Assembly: GCA_029964075.1 (NCBI GenBank)
Contig: CM057135.1
Location: forward strand, 17,634,863 to 17,698,862
Direction: 5' to 3'
Length of the DNA: 64,000 nucleotides
Source of the DNA: Patiria pectinifera
Lineage: Eukaryota > Echinodermata > Asteroidea > Valvatida > Asterinidae
A program made the translations under genes and the position numbers. This document shows, piece by piece, positions 17,550 to 51,720 of the stretch; positions within the stretch are counted from its first letter, which is position 1, and each line of letters begins with the position of its first letter. The notes beneath the pieces were generated by a model. It worked only from the letters and a program-made list of their open reading frames with translations. It was not told where the DNA came from and did not search any database.

Positions 17550-17622
17550 CCACAGTAGGTGCAGAAATATACGAAAATCAAGTCTGGTCCAATCAAAGTT
17601 TCCTAGCTCATCCTAATGTTTG
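17550..17622 (+). repeat. ~70-bp direct repeat, copy B
   Basis: The second copy of the repeat at 12864-12936, in the same orientation. Here it is preceded by TTCCACAG rather than by a transposon end, so it may represent the uninterrupted version of that repeat family. Confidence 0.7.
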
Positions 17623-18578: not shown

Positions 18579-18580
18579 TA

Positions 18581-22513: not shown

Positions 22514-23139
22514 CATCTGCGTCATTCCGTGCTTCTCTCCTTCATGCACCCTCATGCTCTTTTAATCAGATAGATGATTGTTCTAGTTCTGATGAGGATA
22601 CAAGTTGTGCAAGTGATAAGTGCGAGTTGGAGATGAAAACGTTTCAATTGCAACATGTCTTGCTGATCGGGCCGAGTCATAATATTCCACATGCAGCGTT
22701 ATCTAGTCTGTTGCATATTCTACAACCATTTCACTCTGAACTACCAAGAGATCTGCGAAGTCTCTTAGGAATAATAAGACACATTGATGTACAGAGTATA
22801 GCGGCTGGTTTATATTATCATTTTGGTCTGTTTAATGGAATCCAATCAAAACTTGGTGTAAGTTCTGATGTGAAAGGAAACACAATATCTGTCAAAGTAA
22901 GTGTGGATGGATTACCATTGTTCAAAAGTTCTAATGCCCAGTTCTGGCCAATTTTAGACATAATTGATCAACTTCCTGTAAAACTTCCCCTCGTAATTGG
23001 TCTGTTTTCGGGGAACTCCAAGCCTTCTCCAGCAGACGGTTTGGTCTTTCGGATTAGCCACCAAAAGCATCCAGTGCTGGTTTTTAACATTGATAGGGAG
23101 AAGCAGCCAGTCGAATGTAGTGAATCTTTTCTGTTTTAA
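22435..23139 (+). CDS. Transposase-like exon with DGLPLFKSS...FWPI signature, truncated
   Basis: After an AG acceptor at 22433-22434, 235 codons stay open. Residues ~75-190 show a region with HAALSSLLHILQPFHSELP, YHFGL, then VSVDGLPLFKSSNAQFWPIL and VIGLFSGNSKP. I recognise this as the core of a transposon-encoded protein family (putative DDE transposase) common in insects and cnidarians, but I cannot name the superfamily. The motif expected after GxSKP (a CDAPAR-type segment) is absent, so the gene is cut off near 23030. The first ~25 codons lie in the right arm of the inverted repeat, so that arm supplies part of the exon. Confidence 0.5.
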   Translation, partial: YPQGHHFFIKIGKHEVKKCVGLTWNDPSASFRASLLHAPSCSFNQIDDCSSSDEDTSCASDKCELEMKTFQLQHVLLIGPSHNIPHAALSSLLHILQPFHSELPRDLRSLLGIIRHIDVQSIAAGLYYHFGLFNGIQSKLGVSSDVKGNTISVKVSVDGLPLFKSSNAQFWPILDIIDQLPVKLPLVIGLFSGNSKPSPADGLVFRISHQKHPVLVFNIDREKQPVECSESFLF

Positions 23140-26567: not shown

Positions 26568-27179
26568 CAGAATTCCACTGGGACAAGCCGCAACAGCAGA
26601 GTTTTAACAAGCTCATCGAGATATGTAGCAGCGCACCTGTACTCGCCTACTACAACGTACGCAAACACGTCACAATTCAGTGTGATGCCAGCAGCTTTGC
26701 TCTCGGAGGCGTTCTCCTTCAAGATGGCAGACCGATTGCGTACACTTCCAGAGCCCTGACTCAGACCAAGCAGCGGTACGCCCAGATAGAAAAGGAGATG
26801 CTATCCATAGTTCATTGCTGTAAGAAGTTTCACCACTACATCTTTGGCAAAGAAGTTTCAGTAGAGAGTGATCACAAGCCACTCCAAGCCATCTACAGCA
26901 AGCCACTTCTTGCAGCACCAATGAGACTTCAAGCGATGCTACTCAGACTCCAACCATACGACTTAAACGTGACGTACAAGCCTGGCCGAGAAATACCGAT
27001 TGGAGATGCACTCAGCCGTGCCAATCTACGAGAATCCGAGCCAGACATGAAGCCAGTAGTAGTAAACATGACCGACTTCATTGCCGTGACGCCAGCACGA
27101 TACACCCAGTTCCAGAAATGCACAGCGGATGAGCTCAATGAGTTGCATTCCATTATCCTCAAGGGATGACCTGATACTA
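26568..27179 (+). pseudogene. RNase H of element B, up to the transposon insertion
   Basis: A frame change at ~26567 leads into an RNase H fold carrying acids in IQCDASSFALGG, IEKEMLSIV, VESDHKPLQ and GDALSRANL. The frame ends at a TGA (27167-27169) where related elements have Trp, then runs ten more bases to the insertion point at 27179/27180. The same frame resumes at 45791 on the far side of the transposon. Confidence 0.8.
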
Positions 27180-27345
27180 CACTCTAAAAAAGCATTAGTC
27201 AGATTTGACTAGAAATCAGTCAAATTTGACTAGCCAATAAGGGTCAGCTGGGTGCAACTGAAAATCAGTCAATCTGACTAGATTTTTCTAGTCAATATTA
27301 TTGACTAGGAAAACTAGTTATGCAAATGACTGAAATTGTAGTTAA
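27180..27345. repeat. Left terminus and TAGTCA subterminal repeats
   Basis: CACTCTAAAAA is followed within 150 bp by about a dozen copies of TAGTCA, TGACTA, CAGTCA or GACTAG in both orientations, several making CTAGTCA...TGACTAG palindromes. In plant CACTA elements such subterminal repeats are bound by an element-encoded protein (TNPA in En/Spm). Confidence 0.8.
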
Positions 27346-27650
27346 ATCCAACTACTTTTTCTAGTCATAGCATGACTAAATCCGTGGTAAATTTTTCGAT
27401 TTCAGCGAACTAAAATTTGAGTCAAATGCAACTACTTTTTCTAGTCATAGCACGACTAAATCCGTGGTAAATTTTTCGATTTCAGCGAACTAAAATTTGA
27501 GTCAAATGCAACTACTTTTTGTAGTCGTAGCATGACTAAATCCGTTGTAAATTTTTCAATTTCAGCGAACTAAAATTTTAGTCAAATCCTGCTACTTTTT
27601 TGTTTGTAATGACTCAATCCGTTGTGGCTTTTTCAAATTTCAGTTGTACT
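27346..27650 (+). repeat. 80-bp tandem repeat, about 3.8 copies
   Basis: ACTACTTTTT recurs at 27351, 27431, 27511 and 27591, an exact 80-bp period. Each unit contains TAGTCATAG and GACTAAATCCG, so it multiplies the TAGTCA-type subterminal motif. Confidence 0.9.
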
Positions 27651-27739
27651 TGCTTCCTATTGCCTTGTAGTGGGTGGAAAAGTTACAACCTTAAAACAAT
27701 AAATAACAAAACAAACATATAATTGACAATTTTTCTTTT

Positions 27740-28755
27740 CAATTCATTCCTTTAATACTCAAAGCCATACGAAGATGGCATAATTGTCAAGCAAATAATT
27801 ATTTTCAAGTAATTCCTTTTTACTCCGAAAGCCATGACATAAAATGTATATTAAATAAATGTTTTCAAGTAATTCCATTACACTCAAAGCCATGTGAAGG
27901 CATGACATGTCAATTAAATAATTGTTTTCAAGTCATTCATTTATACTCAAAGCCATGTGAAGGCATACTCAAAGCCATGTGAAGGCATAATGCCAATTAA
28001 ATTATTGTTTTCAAGTAATTCCTCAATACTCAAAGCCATGACATAAAATGTCAATTAAATAAATGTTTTCCAGTAGTTCCATTATACTCAAAGCCGTGTG
28101 AAGGCATGACATAATGTCAATGAGATCATTGTTTTCAGGTAATTATTCCATTAAACTCAAGCCATGTGAAGGCATGACATGTCAAATAAATAATGTTTTC
28201 AAGGTATTTCTGTACACTCAAAGCCATACGTGAAGGCATGATATAATGTCAATGAGATCATTGTTTTCAGGTTATTCCATTAAACTCAAAGCCATGTGAA
28301 GGCATGACATGTCAAATAAATAATATTTTCAAGGTATTTCTGTACACTCAAAGCCATATGTGAAGGCATGATATAATGTCAATGAGATAATTGTTTTCAA
28401 GTAATTCCTTTATACTCAAAGCCATGTGAAGGCATGACATACTGTCAATTAAATAATTGTTTTCATCTAATCCCTTTCGAAGGCATGACAAAATGTCAAT
28501 GAGATAATTGTTTTCAAGTAATTGCTTTATACTCAAGGCCATATGAAGGCATGGCATAATTGTTTTAAAGTAATTCCTTTATACTCAAAGCCATGTGAAG
28601 GTCAATTAAATAATGATTTTCAAGTAATTCGTTTATACTCAAAGCCATGTGTAGGCATGACATAATGTCAATTAAATAATTGGTTTCAAGTAATTACTTT
28701 TTACTCAAGGCCATGTGAAGGCATGACATGTCAATATAATTGTTTTCAAGTAAAT
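27740..28755. repeat. ~62-bp minisatellite, about 16-17 copies
   Basis: Units contain CTCAAAGCCATGTGAAGGCA, then TGACATAATGTCAATTAAATAA and TTGTTTTCAAGTAATTCC. Length varies around 55-70 bp because of deletions. Short open frames here are repeat artefacts. It lies between the left terminus and the 3' end of the SAM-domain gene. Confidence 0.9.
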
Positions 28756-30349
28756 CGCCAAACGTACAACGTCAACAAGTTAACCACCAATAGCAACAAA
28801 AGAGGCAATCAGGAAAACATGCACATTAAAAAGCCCAAAACATCAAACGGCATATATTTTTTTGTGAGGCTTACTGGCAGAATGAGACAGAATTGGCATA
28901 GGTTCAAATCAGGGTTTGTGGGTATTGGGAAAGAGTTAAATTCTCCTTGCTGGACTTCAATCTGACATTCCATTGACAACTCATTGCTGTTTAAAGTTCC
29001 CGTTTATCAACATGTCAAAAGTAAATTGAAGGTACTGAGAAAACGGCCTTTAAAGTAAAGTTTAAGTTTTGCGGTCTTGAAAATGAAACATTTTTCTGAC
29101 ACTTTTTGTATTCAACAATTTTTCATAATATTAAGGGAATAAATGTGTTCTTGTGAGCTTTTTTTCAGACCTGTTGGAGTCTAGATGCTGATAATAACTT
29201 GAGCTAGCCAAAGCAAAAGCGGACTCCAACCGTTCTTAAACATGGTGTTTAATAGACCAAGCACAAGTTTATTTCCATTCATAAATACCTTTTCAGTCAA
29301 AAAATTTGGTCAAAAAGTCAAAACGAGTCAAAAAAAAAAATATAAAAAAAATCGATTTGTTCAAAAATCTTTACTCCAGACACCCTTCTACATTATGGGG
29401 TGGCCTGCTCGAGAGTAAAAAATAAGTTATAAACAACTCCTTTTATGGAGATATTGCATGGTATGCAGCTGTTTGGTGTAAAGAACCACTTACTCACTGA
29501 TAGTATTGCGCATGCCTACATTACTGAGGATTGTGATGAACATTCATTCAACCGATAAAACTTTAAAATGTGGGCACTGGGTTTCACAGGAGTCCAAATT
29601 TCATGTGACACTGGAAAAGTGTTTAAGACAGCCAGCTGGTCTTTATCATCTGTTTAAGACCACTCGGGTACATATAGGACCAATAGGAATAAGTGAACTG
29701 TCTTAGGTATTTATGAATTTCTGTTTAAACTATCAGGTCAGAAATATCAATAAATCTTAAAATCAAAAAAGGAAATCACCCCAATAAACAGTTTCTTGCA
29801 TTTGTCTTCTGCTACAGCCTGTGCCCAGTCATTTTGCCAGAACACCGCACATTATTTTTTTAATCATTACTGTCCTTTCACCATTGCTACATGAACATGA
29901 GCAATTCTGTGTTTCTCAAAATTCTTAAAGACAACATCAACTGGAAATTGATTGTTCAAAACTGAACAAAGTCAAAACTGAACACTCATAGAATTCCTCA
30001 GGGGCCATTCTGAATAGTCAATGTTAACAAATTTCGATCTTTTTTTGAAATTGTAGGTGGGCGGTTCAAGGAAATAACTGAAAATCGAAATTCAGTTTAC
30101 AATTAAAGTAAAAACATAAGTTCCGTCTGTTTCTTCTACAAAGTTGAATGAAAACTCCTGAGCTGCGAGAGCATAATTGACATAAACTACATGTATCTGC
30201 TTCATATGAAACATTACTTGGTCTTCAGTGTATAGGACATATTAATTAGTCATTCAGCATTTTAAAGTCAAAATTTTTGGTTGGTGGGTCACAACAATTT
30301 CGACAAAGAAAAGATAAAAACTGTTTAACATTGACCCTATGAATTGCCC
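28756..30349. other. AT-rich 3' flank of the SAM-domain gene, no supported gene
   Basis: Long A/T runs (e.g. about 29328-29345) and no splice-bounded coding segment that I could recognise. Confidence 0.4.
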
Positions 30350-31443
30350 TTAAAGGTGGAGTACATCATTTGTCATTTGTGCATTTTTTTGTTGGAAACA
30401 AAAGTCCAAAAGAAGGGTAGTTAAAGTATTATACAACATTCGCAAACATCCAGAAAAAAAACAACAAAACTACCAAATTATTATAGAGTACCTTACTTGA
30501 GTGTAAGTGAACAATAGTGATTAGTCCCAAGCATCTTGTAAATTGATCATGGCACCACAGTGCTGACATTTGAAAGAAATGTGGAATGTTAGTATAAATT
30601 TCCAACGGTGGTCTGCCAACCATCTTTGGAAAAAATGTTGTTTTCAAATACTGCCCCCAATTTATCAAATTTAGTTAGCCAACAATTTGTTTGCAATTGG
30701 TTGCACATCTGTATATGGGTACAAGCTATCTAGACTAGTTCCCTGACCTTTCAATTCTTTGGCCTCTAGTATAAATTTCTCAGTTCCATTTGAAGTGGTG
30801 TTAAGTACCCAGACTACAAGAACATTTTCCCCTTGTTTTTCTAGCATCTCAGAACACAAAACGAGGTCAGTGTAACATTATATTTGCTGTATAAAATAAA
30901 CCCAAAAATCCATCCATTTCCGAAAATTACAGCTAAAGCAAATGTTGTATATTCCCTTTAACAACTAATTTTTAACTAACCTGATGCAATTTTAGTTCAG
31001 TAAATGCTATATTCCGAGAAACACAATATAGTATCTTGATTTCAAGTAAAAATTTGCTGAGTTGTACATTTTGAATTGCGCTCAAACTCAGTGTTCGGGA
31101 CACATTTTCATTCAGCCGACAGCATGCGCGTATGTCGCGCGTTGAAGTGATGAATGATAGCAACCGCACATGCTTGAACATGCATGTGCGCTGTGTCAAC
31201 ACTCGCGCGCACCAGTTCACAGCTTCGCCAAATTGAAAATAAACTAGTGAGGGAAATTTCCAAAAATGCGTCTTTAGACACATCTTTGCAAATGACCTTT
31301 TATTGTTTTCTTCAAAATCACAGCATATGCCAGAAAGAATAATTTCACAGGGAGTTTAGTGCCATGTTGCTATCTTTCTTTTCAATAATAATTTTGTCAC
31401 TTACTTTTTGGTTAGCTGCATAATGATGTACTACACCTTTAAA
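30350..31443. repeat. Possible ~1.1-kb non-autonomous element with inverted termini
   Basis: TTAAAGGTGGAGTACATCATT at 30350 pairs with AATGATGTACTACACCTTTAA at 31422-31442 (inverted, one mismatch). The interior includes a minus-strand open segment (30859-30671) and a GCAAATGTTGTATATTCCCT motif shared with sites near 50811 and 55432. It sits just past the last SAM-gene exon. Confidence 0.5.
30671..30830 (-). other. Unidentified exon-like open segment
   Basis: About 50 codons read VLVVWVLNTTSNGTEKFILE and then AKELKGQGTSLDSLYPYTDV before a stop. Composition is protein-like, but I do not recognise it. A segment at 51187-50915 has a vaguely similar start (YIWVYARSHHGELT...ASEFKAYRG), so both may be relics of one family. 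Confidence 0.3.
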
Positions 31444-31463
31444 GACTTTTTTATTTGTCAGAC

Positions 31464-31787
31464 TTAATTGGCGGCCCCAATAAACGCCCTTAGAGAAATT
31501 GTGCTTGAAGGAGTGTTACCCTTGCCCCCTGGTTTGCCATCCCCGAGCTCGTATACCACCTTCTGTAGAAAATCCCAGATATTTCTTGCCTGCCATGGGT
31601 AGTCGACCCACAGAACATACACGGCTTTGAAGCACAAATCCACAGCTTCAATTATGGACTTGCAGGGCAAGGCAACTGAGTCTGCGATAACAAATACCTG
31701 ATCCGGTTTCAGTGCTTGTCCAAGTGTCAACACAAATGGCTGTTTTTGTGTTTTCTCTTCCAAATATCTTGCCATGTTAGTCCCAAT
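31464..31787 (-). CDS. SAM-gene exon 10 (conserved C-terminal domain and stop)
   Basis: 108 codons including TAA. Contains QKQPFVLTLGQAL, VFVIADSVALPCKSIIEAVD and an aromatic WVDYPWQARNIWDFLQ segment. Homologous in layout to the plus-strand exon at 17134-17406. Confidence 0.7.
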   Translation of the reverse strand: MGTNMARYLEEKTQKQPFVLTLGQALKPDQVFVIADSVALPCKSIIEAVDLCFKAVYVLWVDYPWQARNIWDFLQKVVYELGDGKPGGKGNTPSSTISLRAFIGAAN

Positions 31788-32534
31788 CTGCATAATAAAA
31801 ACATTAGACAATTAAGTATGCAAAAAGAAAAACACCCCAAAACAAATGCAGAAATGGTAATTTTTATTTTAACCTGTTGGCGCCTGAGACTGTGTATAAT
31901 TAAACACACAAAAGTTTTTAAAAATTAAGATCGAATGACTGATTAACCCGCAACAAGTTAGGCAAGAAACATCTGTCAGCAACTCGCTCGCATATATCAA
32001 GCGAGGCAAGATAATCAGGGTGTGCAACCCGCAAATGACAGCCTGAATCAGTCTGGGATGGAGGTTTGTGAATATGCCACCAATAGATCAATAACAAGCC
32101 TGAAACACTACTAAAAACCCTGAAACAACCCTTTACCCCTTTCAAAAGATGTGTTTTCTGGATGTTTCTGTCCAAATCCAGCACTTTTAATTGTCACGTC
32201 TGCTAGGCAGTTTGTGTCCGTCTGAGTTGTCAGCGACGCTTCCAGATGAAATGTTTTCCGTATGTCTATTCGTTGCAGTTTGGGTTCTGTTCGCGTTTCA
32301 CTTACATCGATATGTAAACTAGGTTTAAAATTCCTGAAGGGATCTGGATGCTCAATGCAATGCATATGACCTATGATTTCAGGCTGACAGATCAGAACAA
32401 TGGAACTATTGCCTGCCAAGCACAAATTGCATAGATTACACAGTAAAAAAAAAATGATGCAAGCATGTTTTTCTTTGTTAGATTAATTCAGTGATCAATT
32501 GAGGGCTACTGAAATATTCCACACAAAATCTTAC

Positions 32535-32677
32535 CGGGGCGATATCAATGAAAGCCTGTCGAGCTTCCTTGGCCGATGTCCTGCGGGACTGTTTGCCAGT
32601 TTTACACATTCCAGGTGGAACAGCCATCCCAAGAGCAAAAAACGCCAGGTTCAAGACCATCTCATCAGAAGAGTCAT
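32535..32677 (-). CDS. SAM-gene exon 9
   Basis: Reads DDSSDEMVLNLAFFALGMAV then a basic SRRTSAKEARQAFIDIAP segment. Donor GTAAGA, phase 0. Confidence 0.7.
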
Positions 32678-33608
32678 CTAAGATAGACAAATAAATGCAT
32701 ATCTTTGAAATGTACTTTTTGCAAATATATGTAGGAAAGAAAAAATCAGTACACACAGCTTTGACACTGCAAATATGCAAACTAAATGAAAACTATATGC
32801 AAACTTTCAATATACAAGGAGCGTTACTGTACAATGCACTCAAACTAAAACCTGACTGGAAGTGAGGAATTTGTTTCTTCTGTTTGTTGCAATATTAAAA
32901 TTAAAGTTTAATACGAAAGTCAAAAAAATGGTATTTGGCATGTTATCTCTCCGCACAAGGGACATACTTTATAAGCATACTTGATTTAATTTTATGCATG
33001 TATGGTGTGTGATGAAGACAATTAGATCAGGCATACAACTAGGAAGTTGCAAAAAAGAGCAGATTCTACCATTTCCAAGACATTGCATTTTTCTATTTTA
33101 ATGGCACACATATTGGAAGTCAAAATTGAGGAAATCAGATGATCCAAGCAAAAGTTGCATGCCTGGTAGTTATAACAACATGAGCACATCAACACTATCA
33201 GGTAGTGCCCTTAAGTACCCGCCTCCCTATTACTATAGCTTAGTATAAATTAATGTCTGTGGATGCAAAGAACATTTTCAAGAGCTGCCAGATGAAATGT
33301 ACATCATTCCATTTAGGCAAATGTAATTACATTCCATCTCATAAAATGCCAAAATTAATCTTTCCACTGCACAAATGTGAAACATTCATTATCTGTTTGA
33401 TACATCATCTGAATACATCCTTGTCACCTGACGGTCAGATAGCCGCCAAAACTGTGACTGTGCAATGAACCTTCCATTACAATTTCATTGAATAATTCAA
33501 TGACACGCAATTAACTACCCACCAATCAGATGATGGGATGTATATTCAGGCATGTATTTCACAAATATTGTCTGCTCTGAGCAGTGTAGTTAAACTAGTC
33601 TTCTGAGA

Positions 33609-33673
33609 TGATCCGTTGAGCATTCTTCCAAAGGCTAATTAAGCCAAGGGAAAGTAGAATGCTCAACGGATCA
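33609..33673. repeat. Perfect 18-bp inverted repeat with 29-nt loop
   Basis: TGATCCGTTGAGCATTCT at 33609-33626 and its exact reverse complement at 33656-33673, in intron 8 of the SAM-domain gene. It could fold as a hairpin RNA. Confidence 0.9.
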
Positions 33674-33986
33674 CAGGGCGTGATTTTCAGCGATAAAGGA
33701 TTAATTTTATCCAAACACAATTAAAATGCACTTCTATTCGAATGCAATATAATAGTTGAAAATTTACTAGCACTTTCAAAACCACCCCTTCACGAAATGT
33801 TTGAACCGAGCTCTGTAGCGTAAACGCTTGGGAACAATACGTATATATGCATTGGCACCCAATGCAGGTACAGTACTTTTGGCTGTGCAGAACAAGACAG
33901 CAAATGCCATTTGACTATAGCTCTCAGCCAATCAAGATACATGCAGAATCTGAGGATGATGTGTTATGAAATTCATTGTAACAAAC

Positions 33987-34122
33987 CTGTTAATTGGAAA
34001 TCCTGCAAGGCGTCTAGCCACTTCATGTTGTTTAAATCAGCGTACTTCAAAACATTTGGTGCCATCCGCGACCAGACTTTAAACATTCTGTCTGCTTGTT
34101 TTGGATACAGAATTCGAAAGTC
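33987..34122 (-). CDS. SAM-gene exon 8
   Basis: Reads DFRILYPKQADRMFKVWSRM then a helix with NNMKWLDALQDFQ. Donor GTTTGT, phase 1. It follows the DTPGM end of exon 7, as in SAMD3-like proteins. Confidence 0.7.
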
Positions 34123-34392
34123 CTGTTGAATCTAATACAAAAATGTAGTGATAATATGAATGATTATCACTATTTGATCTGGACTCGATAACATTCTCCT
34201 TTCTGAGAACACTTCCAACACAACACAATCTCTACTCCTAAAAAAAATGTCTTTGACTATCATACAATGTGGGCTTGTTAGCTTTGTTTTGTTTATTCTT
34301 ATATTTACTCCGTAAAAGCACCACGGTCAACCCTACAATTATGTTCAATTAAATAGAAGGCAAATGCAATGTACGATGGGCACCTTCAGATT

Positions 34393-35034
34393 AATGATGT
34401 GCATCGGGTCAGATCGAGCAGACCAAACCGACCCAAAACATTAGAGATATAAACCGAATCCGAACCTTAACTTCCTCAAACCGACCCGATCAGACCCGAC
34501 AAAAAATGAGGTAAGACCGACCCGAATCGACACGACCCCCCAAAAAACCTGGCTTGGACAAAGTGATCACCTTTTTGTGCCTGCCCTATACCCACGTGGC
34601 ATGAAATCTTTTGCAAAACCATCGTCTCTCTCTCTGTCATACTGATGATCGAGAGTAACTCGGCTTATTGAACAAACGCATGGTGACCACGTGATATCAT
34701 GAAAACTGTTACAATCTATCTATTTCACTGTCAGTCCCAATCCGACTGGAGAAACTAAACACCGTGGAAACTTGATAGTGCGCTCATTGGCCACACCACA
34801 CTGGGCTGTGGTCACAGTGACTGTCAATAATATTGCATCACCTGAATGTCCCAACTGTTTCCGTTTATTTCGGTTTATTTAGGTTTTTCAAAAGATGGCT
34901 AAACCGACCCGACCCGAAAATGTAAATGTAAAACCGAAACCGACCCGACCCGACTGAAAAGATGGCAAACCGACCTGACCCGACCCGAAGTCGGTTTCAG
35001 GTCAGGTCGGTTTCGGGTCGGGTTTGCACATCAT
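34393..35034. repeat. Fold-back MITE rich in CCGACCCGA words
   Basis: AATGATGTGCA at the left pairs with TGCACATCATT at the right. Both flanks carry CCGACCCGA/TCGGGTCGG arrays. It lies wholly in intron 7 of the SAM-domain gene. Confidence 0.7.
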
Positions 35035-35107
35035 TCATGTCATTACTTCAGATATCATGTCACAGCATGTGTATAAAATGGAAATCAGACTTCACTCTGC
35101 AACTTAC

Positions 35108-35283
35108 CATCCCAGGAGTATCAAGAAGGCGGGGCCATTCAGAGACAGGTGACTCAATGGTTTCTCTTATCCAGGATGCTCGTGCCTTACGTCCTTGCCA
35201 TGTATGTGCTAACCGTCTGTTTGGGTTCCTTGTTGTACTTTAACCAGGCCTTCATTTCCCCAGGTCTTCATCAGGCAAGTCAT
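35108..35283 (-). pseudogene. SAM-gene exon 7 with two cancelling indels
   Basis: Outer parts read in the gene's frame (DDLPDEDLG; ARASWIRETIESPVSEWPRL). The middle ~75 bp reads as protein (MKAWLKYNKEPKQTVSTYM) only in another frame. The expected frame meets TGA and TAA there. Losses of one and two bases would explain it, leaving the exon's overall phase intact. Confidence 0.6.
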
Positions 35284-35687
35284 CTGTTACATTAAAAAAG
35301 GGAGGAAAAATGCACAAAAGATGTGAACATAGAAAGGTATCTTCCATGTACATTTGTATCTTGACTGTATTGCGTACAAATATATGCCATATATCACAGA
35401 TTCTAGAGTCCAACCTCATGGTTTTATAATACAGTGCACAAACTACTATCCTACAGATGGATCCAAACTTTCAACGCATTTCCAAATTCTTGGTTTCATC
35501 ATGAAATTTCGGAAATTTATTAGATGAATGCCAAATTGACTTAAGCATAAATGTGACTTGACTCAACCTTCTTCACCTAATACTCTACTCGACTTGCACT
35601 TCCTTGAAATGACCGAATCAATTAAGTCACAAAATTCCGTGACTTGTTACAACTCTGGCTGACTGTAGGCCCTACATGTACATGTAC

Positions 35688-35850
35688 CTGTTAAGTCTCC
35701 GGTACTACTCTCCAGTTTCGTTCTCTTGGGAGACAAGGAAGTTGAAGATGTAGCCTGATGAGTCTGTGCCCTCTTTCGTACGTTGACTAGTCTGTATTCA
35801 AGATAGCCTGACGCTTCTCGTTTGCCCTTAGATGGGGAGAACCATGCCTC
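35688..35850 (-). CDS. SAM-gene exon 6 (tail of helical domain, basic Ser-rich linker)
   Basis: EAWFSPSKGKREASGYLEYR is followed by a basic NVRKRAQ stretch and a Ser/Thr-rich, possibly nuclear-localising SPKRTKL segment. Donor GTACAT, phase 1. Confidence 0.65.
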
Positions 35851-36534
35851 CTGTATGTGTGCATTAAAAAAATAAGTCAACTAGCTTTCCAAAGGCAATT
35901 TTGGTGTAATGTTCAGTTGTGATCTACCTAACAACTGAAGTAAAATGACAGCTTGGAACAAGTTAATACTTTAGTGTAACATGTAAAACAATCTATATTT
36001 TTATCCTGCAATTTAAGTGTCTTAACTACACAATTAAGAGAGCACTAGCTATTGTAAAAATTATCCAAACTTCTCTCTAAGACTGCCTTCACATGGCTTT
36101 TCAAGTCTAACATTCTGTCCCCTAACTAATCTATCGTGGTAGAATTGGTCCGCGCAGCTTGTGAAATACTGTCAAATATGATACACAAAAGGACGAGGAA
36201 ATGCGCAAAATGTGAGACAAACTGAACGTATAATGAAATAAAAAACACAATGTAATAGTGTGTGATCAAGATTTTTGGATGATGATTGGAGGAAAATATA
36301 TTTTAATTATATATGTGCTAAAACTGCTTAATTAAATTAATATATGTGCTAAAACTGCTTATTTCATGCTTTGAAATGAGCAAATTGAAAAAAAAAGTTT
36401 TGTTTGAATGTCATCAATACTAGTTTTAATCAAAATGGTGCCAGTCTAGACAAATTAAGCTCATAGAAGGTATAAATGAAATTTACATAAATACAGGAAA
36501 ACTCGCAATAGAAAGGTAGCCGTTATGTACTTAC

Positions 36535-36619
36535 ATATCCTTCTCCGTCAGAGTCTTTAAGCTTTTGGAACTGATTCACCACAGCTTTGGCAAGTGCAAT
36601 CTTTATGTTGGTTGGTGGC
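36535..36619 (-). CDS. SAM-gene exon 5
   Basis: Completes the split Lys codon and continues PPTNIKIALAKAVVNQFQKL. Donor GTAAGT, phase 0. Confidence 0.7.
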
Positions 36620-37168
36620 CTGGAAATTGATTAATAAATAATGCAAATTTGTGGGATTTTCAAGTATCACAAGCTGGAAAATTGCAAACTCCTTTCTACA
36701 AGTTCGCAAGCTTTTGTCTCAAACATTGAACCTGTGCAAGCACAGCAAGCTCGCAGCAAGCTCGGCGTTACAACACTATACAGCAGAGCTCACTGAAAAC
36801 TTGCTTTTCTACGGTATAACTAGAGTTTGAACCTGTTGGCTGACCCGGCTGGATCAGTCGTTGAGTGTTGATAATTAACATCTGCACTAGCAGGCAAAAG
36901 GGCATGGGTTCGCGTCCTGCTCCACCCCCACAAAGGATTGTAAATTTTACACTAGCTGTAGCTCCAACGAATACACAGTGCTTATTAAATTATGTCAGTG
37001 ATAAGGGAAAAACCAAATCTTAAAAACACACATACTGATGCACTTCTTATTTTGACTAATGAAGTTCTTGCCCTTATTCTGGCATTCTTCTCTATTTTTG
37101 TTTTCAATATTTTTTCGCGAACCAAACTGTAAAAAATTCACATGCTTCATATGAATCGGCTCACTTAC

Positions 37169-37308
37169 TTGCTGGTATATCGCTCAATCATCCAGGCAAC
37201 CAGTGTACGCACCACCATGATTCGAGATTTCACAGACAGTTGTCCTGCTTCCATTTCGTTCAAGATCACTGCTTTCTTTGGTATATCCTGGAGAATTGCT
37301 CTCACATC
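37169..37308 (-). CDS. SAM-gene exon 4 (helical domain)
   Basis: Reads DVRAILQDIPKKAVILNEME then SVKSRIMVVRTLVAWMIERY. Donor GTAAGT leaves phase 2. A helical segment conserved in SAMD3-like proteins by memory. Confidence 0.7.
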
Positions 37309-38042
37309 CTAGTCAAAGGAAAAAGAAAATATAAAAAGATAAACCTAGTGCTTAATGTTTCCAAATCTTCCAAACGATCATTGTAAACTTGCGCACTCAA
37401 TTAGCAGGCGTACATACGTGTGCCTCGTGTGTTGATTGCTTTTGAATCCAATGGGTGTGTTGAAAATTACATAGGGGGGACATTTCAGTTGCTGTAAGGT
37501 TAGCATTACAATGGCTTTTATTTAATTTTTTTTTAATTTTAAAATGAAATGCCGCGGTATCCTGATGAATATTTATGAGATATAGTAATACATACTGGTA
37601 ACTGCACGGGCATAAACAACCACCATTCGTCACCGACTTGAGTTGAGTGAAAGTAAACTGAGAATTTCAAACGTGTCTCATAGGTCACATGGTGGTCCAC
37701 ATGCACGATCTTGCAATCAACAAATTGACAATAGTCGACGTGCATGGCAAATCTGACCGCATCTTAATTTATACTTGCAATGTCTGCAAGTAACACATGA
37801 CTATATGGAAGCGTCTGTATATACCACAAAAAAAATAGTTGCTGTTTAATGCCAATAAATATTTTTGGCAGTCGGCGATTCTGACCAATTTTGATAGGAA
37901 GTTGGTATAATATTTGTTTTTCTAATAACCAATAACGTTTTGTTGGATTCCATTTTATTACTTAAAAAAAAAGGTCGGTAGGGTGACCTAAACAAAAGTT
38001 GTTGTTTTTGGTCTGGCCTTATTTTATACATCATATACTTAC

Positions 38043-38165
38043 AAATGCACCGTGGCAATCATAGCGACTGTGGCCCTGAGCATCTGGTCTTGATGTTGGA
38101 GGTACGTTTCCATCATCTGATTCAATTTGTAGGGCATTCCTTGGGGCATCGCCCTTTGCTTGGTT
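38043..38165 (-). CDS. SAM-gene exon 3 (hydrophilic linker)
   Basis: 41 codons, phase 0 at both ends, GTAAGT donor. Hydrophilic (IESDDGNVPPTSRPDAQG), no known domain. Confidence 0.6.
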
Positions 38166-38929
38166 CTGACAGAAAAAAAAAACCAAGAAATGAGCATAAT
38201 TTGATATTGGCTATACTGGACAAGACTAAAGACCACTGTCTATTATGATGAAGCTTACAAAAAATGACATTCGAACCATTACCAAATGCAGTCAGTTTCA
38301 ACATGTTCAAGAACAAAAAGTGTCACATGTACAAACTAATTAGATTTGACAGTGCATCACTAGTGTTTCAAGTATGATGGTATGAGGTCCAATAGTTCCT
38401 CTAATAGTATTAATTTCCTCAGTCTGGAGAAAAACAGGTTTTATGGGAAATTTCCTCCCTCTTGTAAAATAATTTGGAACTAGCTAGAATATATCCAAAA
38501 TTAAAATGTGTTTTATACATTTTGTTAGACCAAGTCAAGACAAAGACATTCAGTTGCATTTCTCTTAAGATCAAGTAACTATATGGAGTTATTAACAAGG
38601 AACTTAATTGTTGATGGCTCGATCACAATAGGTCTCTCTCAAATGACGTCACAAAACTTCTACAGTTTGCAACATGCACGGCCATTTTTATGTGTCAAAT
38701 TTTCATCTACGCATCAGCTGCGTCGTATTTCGAAGAAATTTCTCATACTTATATAAGTGTTAAGAACATTTTGCACACTGCGTGCACACACACCTGATGG
38801 CATTGAATACGCAGTTGTTACCTATATGGTGTCCTATTAGAGATAATAGTAACACAAAGTACCTTTATTTAAGTAGACGTTGGCACCTTCATGCATGCAG
38901 TAGACCTCCAAAGATGAGCACTTGAGTAT

Positions 38930-41446
38930 TCAGGGAATTTTGCTCCTCAAAGTGATGAAGTGCAGTTGCTTTTGGGGATCCAAGTTGACAGCTTGCAAAG
39001 GATGGTAATCTATCAGAGAGTTTACGCTGATTACTCCTATCTCATGCATCCCTCTTGGCTGTACTTCATGGGAATGAAAGTGCTGATTATACCCTGAAGT
39101 ATGCCATTTGTCCAACACAAAGAACACATCGACCTCCCTGACAAGAACATTGGTTACTTTTCCAAACATTGGCTGGTGGTCATCATCATATTTGTCAACA
39201 ATCAACATCTGGTTCCTTTTGTACTCAATTCCATTGACCTTGCACCAATTAGCAACAAATATGTCATCATACAATCCAACATGCAGTGCCTCTGAAATCA
39301 CTTCAGCAAAGTCTAATGACAAAAGCAACACTGATGACCCTGGACCTACTTCAACATGCTTCTCACGATGCGATTTCTTGGACAACATATTATAGCACAG
39401 CTGTATCTGGTGTCTGTAAGCAAAGGTTTTGCCAACGTTTTGGAAGTTGCAGATTATGTGGGACAATCTCCTCGAGAAGTTGTGTTTAGCTTCAAATCTC
39501 ATTACCCACAGATGTAGAAGAGGACCTACTTGCTCGACTGCATGAGGATAATGTATCATGTGGTGGTGTTTAGGCCTAAGATGACGATCACCGAACAACT
39601 CCAGATAGTACGAGTGGTGATCCCTGATCAAATGCTTCATGTAGATGAGTTCTTCCTTGCTTATGACTGGCGCAAATATTAGCTGCATGCAGTCCAGCAA
39701 GAGAAGAATTAACTCCCAATGAGTGTCACCTTCTGGCACCAGCTGCCCGATAATCAGAGGTAGGTTGCGAATTAGACACCACATTTGTGCCGCATTTTGT
39801 CCTGGCGAAGAATCTGGGTTGTTGACAGCACCCTCACTTAATGGTGTAGGTTTATCCTTAACCTCATGACTGCCATAATTGAAACTCATAATTCTTGCAT
39901 TCAAAGTGTCAAGAGTGAACAGGCCTTTTCTGATAAGCTCTTTCACCACTAGCTTCACTTCCAGAGGACAAACCCCCTCAAGCATATCATGCATTATATC
40001 AAATGTTACATTGTTCACAGTGTGAAAATAAGGTAGTTCATTAAAGGGGGCATGGACCTTTGATTCCAGTGATCTGAAGGTTGTTTTGCTGAAGGTCAAT
40101 TTCATAGTTCTCCCTTGTGCGTAGGCAATCAGGATTCTCTGTTGTTGCATACCACACTTCATCACGGTGCATTTTGCATCTCCGACAAGGATAATTTGCT
40201 GTAAAGCCTTCAGCCAGGCCAAAGAGTGAGTGGATTCCCAAATTATCGCCCACCACCTGAGCAATCACAACTTTGACAACTCCATGGAACTCAGCAGAAT
40301 TTACCTCTAGTCCAACGGCACAGAGGTGCTTCAAGTCTCTGATCAGTGGCTCAAATAATGGTCCGTATCCAAAATATTTACTGTGGCCACTATTGAACAG
40401 CATAAGCATTAATATACTACTGAGAACAGACCTAAGTTTTGGTGGCACATTCAAAATGGAGAAGTACACAGCAGTCAATTTATGAACACCTGCCTTTGGG
40501 CTTAGGGGATTCGTAACTTCAAAGTCATCAATGTACAGAACTAATTTGATTGTTCTCTTTGATGAAAAAAGATTACTTTCTTGACATAACCGTCCATCAT
40601 GAAAATCTCTCAGGCAGCCATCGTCACTTGGTACGTGAGTGTCCATCAGTTTCCAAATATTTTCAGCCTCCAGCAACATTTTCAAAACAGCTTTTATAGG
40701 TATATATTGAAGAGTTAGTTGATGTACTGTTTGCTGAATATTACCTGTGATTAAATTGTTCCGTTGATAATATCCAACTCCAATTGGTACTTCACAAGGC
40801 TTGATAAAACTCTGACAGTTTTCGAAGTATTTTCTCTGCCTGTAAGCTGTTGAAAATTTTCCATATGGATTATTAATTGTCGGGTTTGCAAAACACTGCA
40901 TCAATTGAACAAATTCCGGATCTTCAGCCCCAATTTCTTTTTTCTCAGCAAAGCTTACTGTTTTCATTTGAAGAAAAGTTACAATGTCGGATATTAAATC
41001 TGACGAATTGTTTACCACTTTTGTTACACTTGATTGCACCACGCTACTGGAAGCTAATAACTCTGCAACAACTGAAGCAGCTTTTTCTTCAATCTCAGCC
41101 TCACCAAATTCATCCCAATATTGCAAGTTCTCATGAGCACCTACATTATTATCATCATCATTTTCATCAGAGTCTGAATGAATTGCAACGTCATCTTCTT
41201 CATTATGCTGTCTGTTTTCAACTTGGTGATCACCATCTGCATTGCTATTTCCATGTTTTGAAATTAAGTGGCGGGTGAAAGTGGTGATGTATTTATCAAA
41301 ATTTCGTTCACATCCATCCTGGCTGCATATCACATTCTCAGTAAATATGTGGCCATCCAAGCATCTATGAAAGTTTCTCAAGTGCCACACCAAATTTGCA
41401 GTGTCTCCTGGATGACGTTTCCACATTTTGGACAAATGAAACCCAT
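38930..41446 (-). pseudogene. CACTA-like (CMC) DDE transposase, copy 2, two frameshifts
   Basis: From ATG 41446 an N-terminal C2H2 finger (FICPKCGNV ... HLRNFH) is split by a missing base near 41412. A second finger (CSQDGCERNF ... HLISKH) and an acidic linker follow. The core has IDDFEVTNP, a Gly-Asp in VVGDNLGIHSLFG, the CxxC CRRCKMH, FDIMHDMLEG, HHMIHYPH and FEAKHNFSRR, the same order as copy 1. A G/C run at 40046-40050 carries one base too many and shifts the frame. About 835 codons. Presumed to cut at the CACTCTAAAAA ends. It sits inside intron 2 of the SAM gene on the same strand, so both may come from one right-end promoter by alternative splicing. Confidence 0.8.
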
Positions 41447-41815
41447 ATCAAGAACTACTTCGTATTCACCTCTTTCTCAGCATGCTCAGTTGCCAAAATA
41501 GACAAACAACTTTTAAGTTAAGCCTACATCCTGGGACAGGAACCATCTCCCTCAGAAGTCCTCATGACATTACAGTCATCTCAGTAAATACATGGCCATC
41601 ACAGCATGGTAGTTTCTCAAGTGCCACACCAAATTTGCAGTGTCTCCCTGGATGACGTTCCCATATTTTAGACAAATTAAACTCACGTCAAGAACTACTT
41701 CGTATTCACCTCTTTCTCAGCATGCTCAGTTGCCAACGAAGACAAACGACTTTTAAGTTTAAGCCTGCGTCCTGGGATAGGAACCATCTCCCTCAGTAAG
41801 TCCTCATCACCTGCC
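41338..41815. repeat. 242-bp tandem duplication over SAM exon 2 and the transposase start
   Basis: CTCAGTAAATA starts at 41338 and again at 41580. The two ~235-bp copies differ by substitutions and small indels (CCTGGATG versus CCCTGGATG). The right copy keeps an intact SAM exon; the left copy keeps the better transposase finger. Confidence 0.85.
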
Positions 41816-41849
41816 AACAGCATGAAGGCTTCAGTGTCAATTTCATTTT
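41710..41849 (-). CDS. SAM-gene exon 2 (rest of SAM domain)
   Basis: Acceptor AG at 41851-41850 after a pyrimidine tract. In phase with exon 1 it reads IDTEAFMLLAGDEDLLREMV followed by PIPGRRLKLKSRLSSL, matching the helix 3-5 end of SAM domains. Donor is GAG/GTGAAT. A damaged duplicate of this exon lies at about 41562-41470. Confidence 0.7.
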
Positions 41850-44800
41850 CTAGAAGAAAAAGAAAGGGTTCAAAAGAAAAGCTTTACTTGTAAATTACCT
41901 CTAACATCATAAATAGTAGCTTATATAACCACTGATATCAGTCACTGATTTCTCCGGAACTACTCACATTTTTACCAAACCAAAAGGTTATACATTCTCT
42001 TTGTACATTCAGAAACATTGTGGGAAAATTTCATTTCAATCGGGTTTTTGAGGACAAACGTGAAATAGTCTTGAACATAAGTGCCACGCCATATCGTACG
42101 CGTGTACAGATGGCCGGCTGTATACTGTATGTGCACAAATCTGCATAACGCATTGAGCTGCATGCATGTATGAAAACACATGGGCGTGTACGTGCTAGTG
42201 CAGCAGTGACTGTTCCCACCGCGCCGCGCACTTAGGGCCAAATAGCAATAGTCCCGCTGTGCATGCATAATATTTGTCTTAGGGTGACGACGGCTGATTT
42301 TCGGCTAACTTTGACAAATGTTTTGTTAAAAAACGAGTTTGACAAATAGATTTGACAGAATGGATTTTTTGGCAGATTTCTTCAAAAATGGTTGACAGAA
42401 AAACATAGGAAATTTGAAGGGAAAAAAAGGTACAATTCATTTGTTTTAAAAAGCTGCGATCTTTTCAACCAAGCCTAGCCTAGTTCCAGATTACGCGTGC
42501 ACTTGCGACCCAACTACACGCGTGTTAATCAATTTCGTGTGACGTATTCTGTGCTGGGTCAAAGGTTTTCAGTTTCAAAATCATTTACGTTAATTCTTTA
42601 TTCAAAATTTGCAGGAATTCTCTCGAATGAACTATTTTTGGAAAATTAAATAATACTTTATCAGAAAATGTGCTTGATCCATGGTGGTTCTGGCTGAAAA
42701 ACTGATTAAACCGATCCGGAACTAGGAAAAGTGGCATGATTGGTAGTTTGATGTCGTAAAGTCAAAATAAAAAGAGCTTAAATTTGGAAAATTAGTTTGT
42801 AAACCTTTTAACTAATGTCACTTAAATTCATATGGAGTAGGCTAGTTGAGCTGAAAGCAGCCTGAACATGTTGAAAATGACTGTAGGCCTATCCTACTCC
42901 TTTTTGTACGCAAAATAATCACACTTTACTCTGCATCTAGCCTTAGTTTACGGCCAGCACTCAGTAGACTCTACATGCTGGGCCATACGAACATTGATTC
43001 CTGCCAAAAGTGAGGATTTGAAGGGGAAAACAATATTTCAATCTTTCGAACTCATACTCGGAAGGTGCGTTCACTTACCCGTACCTATCAATATTCCCCC
43101 CAAATTAGGACTTTCCCGGGCTTCCTTCTGGTGAAATTCGTCTCTTAAAAAAATTAATTTGTCAACCGAAGTGGTCATGACATATGACAGGCAGCTTGCC
43201 AAGTATAAGTAGTCTGGTTCCGCTCCGACCAAAATATTTCCCTTTCTTTAATGTACACACGTGAAGGGGAACGCGTCTGGTTATGGCCGTATCATATCCG
43301 AAAAAAAAATCGCATGCGGGATCAGAACAGCCAGCCAATCACAGTGCGCGCATCTTAATTATAATATGCTAAATCGAGGAGCGCCGCACTGTGGGTTTTT
43401 TGGATATGATATACCATACGCAGTACCTTCAAGTGTGAGAAAGGGAAATATCTTGGTCAGGACCAGACTACTTCAACTCGGCTAAAACCGCCTGTCATGA
43501 ACGCCTCATGAACTTCCACTTCGGTTGACAATTATTTTTTTAAGAGATGAATTTCACCAGGAAGGAAGCACGGGAAAGTCCTAATTTTGGGGGAATATTG
43601 ATGGGTCATATAGGTGCCGGTAAGTGAACTCACCTTCCGAGTATGAGTTGGAAAGATTGAAGTAGGCCTATAATTTTTTATTTATTTTTTATTTTCAAAC
43701 CCTCACTTTGGGAATCAATGTTCGTATGGCCCAGCATGTAGAGTCTACTCAGTGCGGGCCATAGACTAGGGCTACTCTGCATCAAGCGAACAATCAACAC
43801 ATTTCACTTTTCAGAGTTGCAAAAAATCCCTGCTTTAGGCCTAAAAAAAAAATACTCGGTCTCTGGTCAGCGCGCGCGTCGATTTTAATCATGCGCATCA
43901 ACCTTTTTATTTCTTCAAATTAACACGGAAGCTACAACAGCGCCCTCTATTGCCGAGCCTCCTCAAATTTTTGTAGCAAGGAGCACCAAGGAATGGGGAA
44001 ATTGCAACAAGGCAAATGATAAAGGGTACCAAGGCAAATTATGGAGGACACCAATGTATAATGAGGACACAAAAAAGCAAAATAGTACCCACCTTGTCTG
44101 TACAATACAAGCTTGGAAAAAAAAAGCCAACCCCCCCCTAAAAAAAAAAAACCCTGCATCGCCGCATCAATTCCAAAACTTTGGTCTGACCAGAGACCGA
44201 CTATTTTTTTTTTTGGCCTTATCCATTTTTCTCTGGTTTGCATATTCCGACGTTAATAACCACACTTAAAATGTTTCTTTTATTTTTTTCTACAAAATCA
44301 AAAACAAATGTAGAAAATAGGCTATATTCAAACAATTTATAGCCTCCCTAAACATGCTAACCTAGATCAGGAACTTGTGATTTTGACTCAAGTTTTAAGG
44401 CTTAGGCCTAGGCCCTACTCAAATTGTAAATCATATTACAAGATTCTAACATTCTGAGTTGAAACCATTGTTTGTTGACTCCAATGGAAGTGGTCCTCCA
44501 GAAATTGAATAGCCTAAGTAACAAAACTTTTTTTAAAGTGTAGTCCTAGGGCCTAATGCTTTGAATTCAGACCGGGAATAATTATTTTGACTGAAAACAA
44601 AACGATAAATAACCCAAACGTTAGTTTTCTGCTGCCGTTGTAACAATGTGACACACCCCCTCTGATCTACGCGCTAAACAAATACTTCAACGGGGAGGAA
44701 GTTTTTTAGATATAACGAACCGCAAATTTTCTGAGGTGTTTCCCGCGCGCATTGCGGCACGGCTTGGCTGTTCCAATAAGTGACACAACCCCTTCTATTT

Positions 44801-45378
44801 ACACGTGTACGATATAGCAAAGACAAGGAGGAAGTTTTGCATAATCAATCAACGATTTGATCGCGTCGCGCCCAAATGCCACGCCGGCGCGCGGTGGGCG
44901 GCCACGGCCGGCCCGGCACAGGCCCCGTGGCGCTTGCGGCTAGTCTCCCGCCACGGATTTGCACTGAATGATATACGCAGCCGCGTATTTCGTACTTAGG
45001 CCCGGCTTACTTTGCATTCTTTCAAAACTATATTGTGAACATTTCAAAGGCTTTTAAGATTTCTTTAAGCTTAACGTTTAGGTCGACATGGATCTGTGTT
45101 TCAGGGAGTACATTTTCTCGCCTGTCGTGGTATTTTACTGTTATTTTTGCCCTCTTTTTTAAGCCTGGTACTAGAAGTAGAACTAGTTTAACGTACTGTT
45201 TTTTCGCCGAGCCTAAATTTATAGGCCGAACTTAAGTCATGCATGCCGTTCTTCTGTACGAACGTACGTCGTTCGCGTTACGAAGCCTAGTAGTGAATGT
45301 CATGACTACATGTACTTCAATTTACCTATAGCTATACTATACTACAAGTTCAAAACCACAAACTTTTAATAGACCTAC
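41850..45378. other. Intron 1 of the SAM gene, with GC-rich patch and fold-back
   Basis: Holds the fold-back at 42951-43760, poly-A/C homopolymers near 44109-44151, a GC-rich CpG patch at about 44865-44945 and T-rich stretches. No other coding segment was recognised. Confidence 0.5.
42951..43760. repeat. Fold-back element with ~350-bp arms
   Basis: The left arm (42951-43300) and right arm (43402-43760) are inverted copies sharing AGACTCTACATGCTGGGCC, GGACTTTCCCG and AATATTTCCCTTTCT segments, with many substitutions. The ~100-bp centre contains CGCATGCGG and GCGCGCATC words. Confidence 0.8.
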
Positions 45379-45445
45379 CTTTAAAGGTATTTACGAGACA
45401 GCCCATCCCCCAGCTCTCCAGCTTTTCTGCTACAAACTCGTCCAT
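45379..45445 (-). CDS. SAM-gene exon 1 (start codon, SAM helix 1)
   Basis: ATG 45445-45443, then VAEKLESWGMGCLVNTFK, the typical first helices of a SAM domain (W in helix 1). Donor GTAGGT at 45378. It begins ~340 bp inside the transposon's right end, so the promoter must lie in the terminal region. Confidence 0.7.
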
Positions 45446-45469
45446 GACCCGGCCGCCCTCGCTGCCTAG

Positions 45470-45600
45470 CCTGCGCTATCGATACATGTACATGTACATA
45501 CGTACGTACACGGCGGTGTGCTAGTATAGTGCAGTGTACATGTACATACTACGTACGTATACGTACGTACGCTAGACGTATACGCGCGCAATAAATTAGT
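45470..45600. repeat. ACGT/TACATG palindromic simple repeat upstream of SAM exon 1
   Basis: Alternating TACGTACGTA and TACATGTACATG words lie between the transposon's right terminus and exon 1, in the probable promoter interval. No TATA box can be assigned with confidence. Confidence 0.6.
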
Positions 45601-45654
45601 CTCGCCCCTTTGAGCAGTGTTGGAAACCCATCTGCGTGACGTAAAATACACTGT

Positions 45655-45788
45655 GACTAGATTCTCAGTTACACTAGTCAAAACGATTATCGGTCAACGT
45701 GGAATTTCGCATGTTTAATTAAATTCCTAGTCAATTTTCGATAACTAGGAAAACCAGTCAATATTCTGACTATGTTGTTTTTAGAGTG
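45655..45788. repeat. Right terminus and TAGTCA subterminal repeats
   Basis: Ends TTTTTAGAGTG. The preceding 130 bp holds GTGACTAG, ACTAGTCA, CCTAGTCA, ACTAGGA, CCAGTCA and CTGACTA, the same motif family as at the left end. Confidence 0.8.
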
Positions 45789-51587: not shown

Positions 51588-51720
51588 AACTGAGGAATAG
51601 GTTTTCCTTCTTCAAAAACACGAAGTCCATCAAAATTTAGCTTCGTGCTTCCAATCCAGGCTACCTTTACATCAGTGGGAAGTTCCTCGTCTCCACGTGG
51701 CCAGCGCTTCAGTTGAAGAT
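51588..51720 (-). other. Unidentified exon-like segment
   Basis: About 40 codons (LKRWPRGDEELPTDVKVAWI, then STKLNFDGLRVFEEGKPIPQ) precede a TAA. Protein-like but unknown. The 114-bp tandem repeat directly abuts its upstream side and continues its frame. Confidence 0.3.

What the first reader, a model, noticed from the sequence alone, without database searches (positions are those of the whole stretch)
27180..45788. Complete 18.6-kb animal CACTA-like transposon with a SAM-domain cargo gene
Matching CACTCTAAAAA termini, TA duplications, shared subterminal motifs, a CMC-type DDE transposase and a phase-consistent ten-exon SAM/SAMD3-like gene lie within one bounded unit. I know of no described function for a SAM-domain accessory gene in animal CACTA elements. 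It may replace TNPA as the subterminal-repeat binding protein, or modulate the host.
Basis: partly seen in the sequence, partly recalled or inferred. Interest (0 to 1): 0.9.

Follow-up and report, generated by a model that had tools for sequence, protein, structure and literature searches.

The report
Animal CACTA transposon with SAM partner
A decayed 18.6-kb jumping gene in an animal genome carries, besides its cutting enzyme, a second gene with a SAM domain (a protein-association module) whose relatives occur in corals, springtails, fish and sea urchins, and which looks like a built-in helper of the transposon rather than a stray passenger.

Summary
The element is real. Both termini (CACTCTAAAAA, at 27180 and 45788), a TA duplication, a dense subterminal TAGTCA array and an in-frame empty site inside an LTR-retrotransposon pol gene hold up. 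Its transposase is a CMC-type DDE enzyme whose close relative is predicted to have a RAG1-like core. The ten-exon SAM gene is there with consistent splice phases; its start codon lies 343 bp inside the right end. Three corrections. The copy is broken: the transposase has two frame breaks, and one SAM-gene exon has two stops. The SAM gene is not cargo: relatives occur in coral, springtail, fish and echinoderm proteins, three proteins found with the transposase carry SAM or SAM-gene sequence, and a second CMC-type terminus in this window has the gene's last exon 1.2 kb inside it. The transposase lies on the same strand inside the SAM gene's second intron, as in maize En/Spm (tnpA/tnpD). Best reading: one promoter, two products, a transposase and a SAM-bearing accessory protein that probably works on the subterminal repeats. 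DNA binding, transcripts and copies elsewhere in the genome were not tested. I found no such gene described in the papers searched.

The parts
27178..27179 (.). left copy of the TA target-site duplication
   Evidence: sequence; in-frame empty site only when one TA is removed
27180..27190 (+). left terminal inverted repeat CACTCTAAAAA
27196..27600 (.). left subterminal region: 11 TAGTCA/TGACTA sites and an 80-bp tandem repeat (27329-27600, 3.4 copies)
27736..28729 (.). AT-rich overlapping tandem repeats inside the left end
31464..31787 (-). SAM gene, last exon J (IGTN...QPFVL...AVDLCFK...), ends in TAA; AATAAA follows at 31455
   Evidence: family HMM built without the window, E 1e-39
32535..32677 (-). 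SAM gene exon H
   Evidence: E 4e-06 without the window in the HMM; GT-AG, phase
33987..34131 (-). SAM gene exon G
   Evidence: E 3.5e-08
35108..35283 (-). SAM gene exon F, with two internal frame changes and two stops in the spliced frame
   Evidence: E 2.4e-08 and 1.8e-04 in two frames
35688..35850 (-). SAM gene exon E
   Evidence: E 3.7e-10
36535..36619 (-). SAM gene exon D
   Evidence: E 3.1e-09
37169..37308 (-). SAM gene exon C
   Evidence: E 2.3e-08
38043..38165 (-). SAM gene exon B (low-complexity linker; weakest exon call)
   Evidence: splice sites and phase; E 0.024 only with an HMM that includes the window, no hit without it
38930..41446 (-). CMC transposase: zinc fingers, DDE core and C-terminal domain (BAH-like in the model of a relative); broken in the first zinc finger and near 40045; inside the SAM gene's second intron; AATAAA at 38869
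40527..40529 (-). catalytic D1 codon (DDFEVTNP), intact
   Evidence: position computed by hand from the ORF start at 41447
40245..40247 (-). catalytic D2 codon (GDNLG), intact
   Evidence: position computed by hand
39491..39493 (-). catalytic E codon (MRFEAKH), intact
   Evidence: position computed by hand
41469..41561 (-). decayed tandem copy of the second SAM half-exon; the frame of its last part ends in TAG at 41457, 8 nt before the transposase ATG at 41446
   Evidence: E 0.004 with an HMM that includes the window
41710..41849 (-). SAM gene exon A: second half of the SAM domain
   Evidence: SAM HMM built without the window, E 3.1e-07, best of 2732 window ORFs; splice sites
45379..45445 (-). 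SAM gene exon 1: start codon and first half of the SAM domain (MDEFVAEKLESWGMGCLVNTFK)
   Evidence: score 58 against the Diadema exon, next best in the element 19; SAM HMM without the window, E 3e-05, second best of 2732 ORFs
45654..45772 (.). right subterminal region with 4 TAGTCA/TGACTA sites, 5' of exon 1
45778..45788 (-). right terminal inverted repeat CACTCTAAAAA
45789..45790 (.). right copy of the TA target-site duplication

Best explanation
This is a decayed copy of an autonomous-type animal CMC (CACTA-like) DNA transposon that encodes two proteins on its minus strand, probably from one transcription unit beginning at its right end. Shown: the termini, TA duplication and empty site; the transposase with an intact D, D, E set, C(2)C and H(3)H, whose close relative is predicted to have a RAG1-like core; the SAM gene's ten exons; and the position of the transposase ORF inside the SAM gene's second intron, right behind the SAM half-exons. 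Inferred: the primary transcript starts in the right subterminal region. If the second SAM exon is spliced on to exon B, an mRNA for an accessory protein results, an N-terminal SAM domain followed by about 430 residues. If that splice is not made and the RNA ends near the AATAAA at 38869, the transposase is translated from its own ATG (reinitiation after the short SAM frame) or, in related elements, as a SAM-zinc finger-transposase fusion. Inferred further: the accessory protein does the job of plant TNPA. It acts at the TAGTCA arrays at both ends and, through SAM-SAM association, clusters the ends and helps assemble the transposase there, and it may regulate the promoter that lies in the same array. 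I hold 'integral accessory gene, not cargo' at about 0.9, 'shared transcription unit with alternative processing' at about 0.65, and 'acts at subterminal repeats through SAM association' at about 0.4.
Against: No transcript was seen. P0022 and P0045 are gene models and could be prediction artefacts; P0022 skips the zinc fingers, and P0045 lacks the rest of the transposase and the SAM gene's C-terminal domain. The window copy is broken in both genes. Of 49 proteins found with the transposase, only 3 carry a significant SAM or SAM-gene match; P0035 (0.11), P0031 (0.28) and P0032 (0.29) are at or near the level of the best reversed controls (0.22), although P0032 has Pfam SAM_1 at 4.6e-4, below its cut-off. 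8 of the 15 SAM-gene relatives show no SAM domain in their gene models, P0001 and P0002, the two nearest, among them. The close echinoderm relatives of the transposase start at the zinc finger, which fits a separate ORF and does not by itself show sharing. No DNA-binding fold was recognised in the accessory protein, and its net charge is near zero (-4 to +11 in 10 proteins). AATAAA is common by chance here (16 on the minus strand of the element). Exon B has no homology support. The second terminus has no matching left end, and the second transposase in the window points the other way. Genome-wide copies could not be searched.
Confidence: 0.6

Rival explanations
1. Cargo: a host SAM-domain gene was captured once by this element and has no role in transposition.
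For: SAM domains are common in animal host genes (recalled); several fish relatives are annotated as ordinary uncharacterized genes.
Against: Relatives in echinoderms, fish, coral and springtail; proteins that join SAM or SAM-gene sequence and transposase; a second CMC-like terminus in the window with a SAM-gene last exon; transposase nested in the gene's intron.
Confidence: 0.06
2. A host SAM gene into whose intron the transposase part was inserted, so the SAM exons are not part of the element.
For: Transposase and SAM gene share a strand and the transposase lies in an intron.
Against: All ten exons lie inside the terminal repeats, and the empty site restores a pol frame across the whole 18.6 kb.
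Confidence: 0.02
3. Accessory gene integral to the element, but acting on the host (silencing, chromatin or repair) rather than on the subterminal repeats.
For: No DNA-binding fold recognised beyond SAM; SAM domains often scaffold (recalled); transposon proteins that counter silencing are known (VANC, abstract in the listing; TnpA, passage of PMC10398659).
Against: The ends carry a dense repeat array of the kind that accessory proteins bind in plant CACTA elements; the transposase of a relative has a predicted BAH-like domain that could serve chromatin.
Confidence: 0.25
4. Two separately transcribed genes without a shared first exon; the SAM half-exons before the transposase are only exons of the SAM gene.
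For: Close relatives of the transposase start at their own methionine before the zinc finger.
Against: P0022 and P0030 carry SAM sequence joined to transposase; in the window the SAM frame ends 8 nt before the transposase ATG.
Confidence: 0.3

Closest known systems
SmTRC1 and related animal TRC elements (Schistosoma mansoni; PMC1636069)
   Same: Animal CACTA relative with tnp2-type transposase, 2-bp duplications (7 of 14 copies in that paper), alternatively spliced transcripts that omit the transposase and encode other proteins; relatives reported in Strongylocentrotus, Ciona, Danio, Aedes.
   Different: Reported TIRs begin with CCC; the non-transposase parts were said not to be detectably conserved, and in the parts I read (abstract, section 8, passages) no SAM domain is mentioned. 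Whether SmTRC-PrA is a relative was not tested.
En/Spm of maize, and Tgmt* of soybean (PMC2613891)
   Same: One transcription unit, transposase ORF from an intron region, a second spliced product, subterminal repeats that the second protein binds or is thought to bind.
   Different: Plant elements, 3-bp duplication in Tgmt*; their accessory proteins share little similarity even with each other, whereas the SAM gene is recognisable across animal phyla.
RAG1/RAG2 and ProtoRAG, Transib
   Different: Accessory protein is SAM-based, not kelch/PHD (recalled); 2-bp TA duplication.
SAM domains of tankyrase, ANKS3/6, BICC1, Scm/Sfmbt
   Same: Predicted fold, rmsd 1.2-1.4 over about 60 residues.
   Different: Host proteins; that several of them polymerise is recalled, and whether the transposon SAM does is untested.

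Membership tests
CMC clade of DNA transposons | DDE catalytic residues | tested here: met
   D305, D399, E650 of P0003 invariant in 29 aligned relatives and present in the window copy; RAG1-like core in the P0003 model. Which D of the DD pair is catalytic was inferred from invariance
CMC clade of DNA transposons | C(2)C and H(3-4)H between second D and E (PMC12730594, passages) | tested here: met
   CRRC and PKHHHMIH in the window copy; invariant C419, C422, H626, H630
CMC clade of DNA transposons | 5'-CA..TG-3' termini and 2-5 bp target duplications (PMC12730594, passages, there for CMCT) | tested here: met
   CACTCT...AGAGTG, TA; empty site in frame
EnSpm/CACTA sensu stricto | termini beginning CACTA | tested here: not met
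   termini begin CACTC; sub-lineage inside CMC left open
EnSpm/CACTA sensu stricto | Pfam Transposase_21 (tnp2) above its cut-off | tested here: not met
   best piece 16.4 bits, E 0.0054, against 28.6; relative P0016 27.6 against 28.6. A weak match only
En/Spm-type two-product organisation | transposase ORF inside an intron of the accessory gene, same strand | tested here: met
   SAM intron 41709-38166 holds transposase 41446-38930
En/Spm-type two-product organisation | both products from alternatively processed RNA of one promoter | not testable with these tools
   no RNA; indirect support from P0022, P0030, P0045
En/Spm-type two-product organisation | accessory protein binds the subterminal repeats | not testable with these tools
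   repeats present; binding needs an experiment
SAM domain proteins | five-helix SAM fold | tested here: met
   [not shown]
SAM domain proteins | Pfam SAM_1 above its cut-off | tested here: not met
   13.8 and 13.9 bits in P0054 and P0057 against 23; no SAM hit reported for the window protein, scanned without exon 1. Fold and family HMM, not the Pfam profile, support the name
SAMD3 (vertebrate host gene) | homology of the region outside the SAM domain | not tested

The most novel reading that the evidence does not exclude
Animal CACTA elements assemble their transposition complex through a SAM module that alternative RNA processing can place both on an accessory end-coating protein and on the RAG1-like transposase, so that SAM-SAM association recruits the enzyme to the subterminal repeats. 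This would be an ancient animal counterpart of TNPA/TNPD built on an unrelated protein, and an accessory partner for a RAG1-type enzyme different from RAG2.
Probability: 0.25. Interest if true: 0.85.

Novelty: new variant of a known kind. Interest (0 to 1): 0.66.

Why it matters
Plant CACTA elements need a second protein, but what the animal ones use has not been clear; the SmTRC1 paper found spliced side products without recognisable relatives (PMC1636069). A SAM-domain accessory gene recognisable across animals, wired to the transposase through nested exons, would give that missing component, make transposition of animal CACTA elements testable with two defined proteins, and offer a comparison for how a RAG1-type enzyme acquires a helper. 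It would also mean that uncharacterized proteins of this family in fish, coral and springtail annotations may be transposon genes or domesticated ones.

Tried and rejected
Rejected: cargo capture and host gene with an inserted transposase (see rivals). A candidate exon near 32417 was considered and dropped because the exon H to exon J junction is in phase and lines up with P0001, P0002 and P0061 without it. The second transposase (10966-8495, minus) was considered as partner of the second SAM exon (17125-17403, plus); it points the other way and no left terminus was found, so they are kept apart. A first test with HMMs that include the window sequence was repeated without it; exon A, exon 1 and the coupling proteins held, exon B lost its weak support, and P0031, P0032 and P0035 stayed near the level of reversed controls.

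Led nowhere: scans of viral contigs with A4 and A3 (no confirmed loci) and of prokaryote genomes with A4; solved structures by sequence for the SAM gene (only one row, E 0.56) and for the transposase (the rows lie in the zinc-finger part and the stretch just behind it); viral structure library (no E <= 0.001; a few viral SAM proteins at high probability but E 2 or worse). No fold was recognised for the SAM gene outside its SAM domain; one search warns that those parts were barely tested. Remaining exons of the second SAM gene: only the last exon was found. Nine paper searches listed no paper that by title or abstract treats a SAM-domain gene in a CACTA element; for I saw 25 of 35, for 12 of 13. 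Repbase reports and most subscription journals are not in that library. Papers seen: PMC1636069 abstract, section 8 and passages; PMC12730594, PMC10398659, PMC2613891 and PMC9004415 passages only; all others as listings.
Full report
THE ELEMENT. CACTCTAAAAA occurs exactly twice in the window, inverted, at 27180-27190 and 45778-45788; the mean in 100 shuffles is 0.05 and no shuffle has two. TA flanks both ends. The left flank is a retrotransposon pol gene (Pfam RVT_1, RT_RNaseH_2 and RT_RNaseH; 'Ty3/gypsy' or LTR type is my recall). Joining the flanks after removing one TA gives a continuous frame across the junction (one stop codon lies just left of it), while keeping both TAs breaks it. This supports a 2-bp TA duplication and shows that the 18,609 bp arrived as a unit. 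The two terminal 150-bp pieces hold 10 TAGTCA/TGACTA sites against a mean of 0.30 and a maximum of 3 in 1000 shuffles; the interior of the element and the rest of the window have about 0.5 per kb.

THE SAM GENE. Nine exons between 41849 and 31464 were read from homology and splice sites. With a family HMM built only from 12 database proteins, exons C, D, E, F, G, H and J score 4e-06 to 1e-39 among 2732 window ORFs; exon B has no support beyond splice sites and phase. The first exon was found with the N-terminus of a Diadema setosum protein (P0022): MDEFVAEKLESWGMGCLVNTFK at 45445 scores 58, the next best place in the element 19. A SAM HMM from four database proteins has only two hits at E <= 1 in the window, exon A (3.1e-07) and exon 1 (3e-05). 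All nine introns are GT-AG and all phases agree; the spliced length is 1506 nt including the stop. The gene is broken in exon F, which leaves and regains frame, giving two stops in the spliced reading. AATAAA follows the SAM stop (31455) and the transposase stop (38869), but 16 such hexamers lie on this strand of the element, so this is weak.

COUPLING TO CMC TRANSPOSONS. Inside the window the transposase lies in the SAM gene's second intron (41709-38166). In the decayed tandem copy next to it the SAM frame ends at TAG 41457, 8 nt before the transposase ATG at 41446. Of the 49 proteins found with the transposase, three carry significant SAM or SAM-gene sequence by HMMs built without the window: P0045 (Holothuria leucospilota, E 3.6e-33), P0030 (SAM half then zinc fingers, E 2.2e-06) and P0022 (E 3.6e-05); the best of 49 reversed sequences reaches 0.22 (the earlier run with the window in the HMMs gave 1.6e-34, 1.6e-06 and 6.9e-06). 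P0035, P0031, P0032 and P0051 look similar by eye but do not reach significance. Finally, the window holds a second terminus of the same type: TACACCCTAAAAA at 18580-18568 (0.018 exact matches to TACACNCTAAAAA expected per window, 3 found), with its own subterminal motif (AGTGCTA, 5 of 7 window occurrences within about 170 bp of that end). The last exon of a second, divergent SAM gene lies 1.2 kb inside it (17125-17403, E 5e-14). Its left end was not found.

HOW IT PROBABLY WORKS. Shown: two genes, nested, within one bounded element; a transposase whose relative has a RAG1-like predicted core; an accessory gene with two SAM half-exons. Inferred: one transcript from the right subterminal region, processed either into the SAM protein or into the transposase, as in maize En/Spm, where the transposase ORFs come from the intron-1 region and TNPA binds the subterminal repeats (PMC2613891, passages), and as alternative splicing was shown by RT-PCR for SmTRC1 (PMC1636069, section 8). 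The SAM protein most likely acts at the TAGTCA arrays and clusters ends and enzyme by SAM association. Against this stand the lack of RNA, the near-neutral charge of the accessory proteins, the absence of a recognised DNA-binding fold, SAM-less models in 8 of 15 relatives, and the broken state of this copy.

NOVELTY. The element is a new member of the CMC clade, which is known in animals. The conserved SAM accessory gene and its nested layout are what is new as far as I could see: searches combining CACTA or EnSpm or transposase with SAM domain or sterile alpha motif returned nothing on point, and neither did the broader ones (19, 30, 80, 84). Repbase reports are not in that library, so an entry there may exist. 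I therefore call it a new variant of a known kind.

Noticed in passing
8495-10966 (-): A second, divergent CMC transposase (about 25% identity to P0003, E 1.3e-66; HMM E 8.4e-125), in two ORFs, with D, D, E, C(2)C and H(3)H present.
   Followed up: partly
17125-18580 (+): Last exon of a second SAM gene (E 5e-14) 1.2 kb inside a terminus CACCCTAAAAAAC followed by TA, with an AGTGCTA subterminal cluster; left end not found.
   Followed up: partly
[not shown]
   Followed up: partly
42938-43774: A largely palindromic stretch of about 840 bp (longest arms 91-93% complementary) in the SAM gene's first intron; looks like a foldback element nested in the transposon.
   Followed up: no
20432-22486: A 2-kb foldback structure with arms up to 201 nt at 95% complementarity, overlapping the start of an ORF at 22315-23139 without a Pfam match at E <= 0.01.
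   Followed up: no
41380-41860: Tandem duplication of about 240 bp covering the second SAM half-exon and the transposase start; the upstream copy has lost the transposase ATG, the downstream copy the full SAM exon.
   Followed up: yes
27736-28729: About 1 kb of overlapping AT-rich tandem repeats inside the left end of the element.
   Followed up: no
51717-52334: 114-bp tandem repeat, 5.4 copies, 90% matches, open in one frame.
   Followed up: no
55542-56873 (-): 443-aa ORF with DUF7869 (E 3.2e-07).
   Followed up: no
59534-60337 and 62078-63937 (+): Two further reverse transcriptase ORFs (Pfam RVT_1) outside the element; the window is rich in transposable elements.
   Followed up: no
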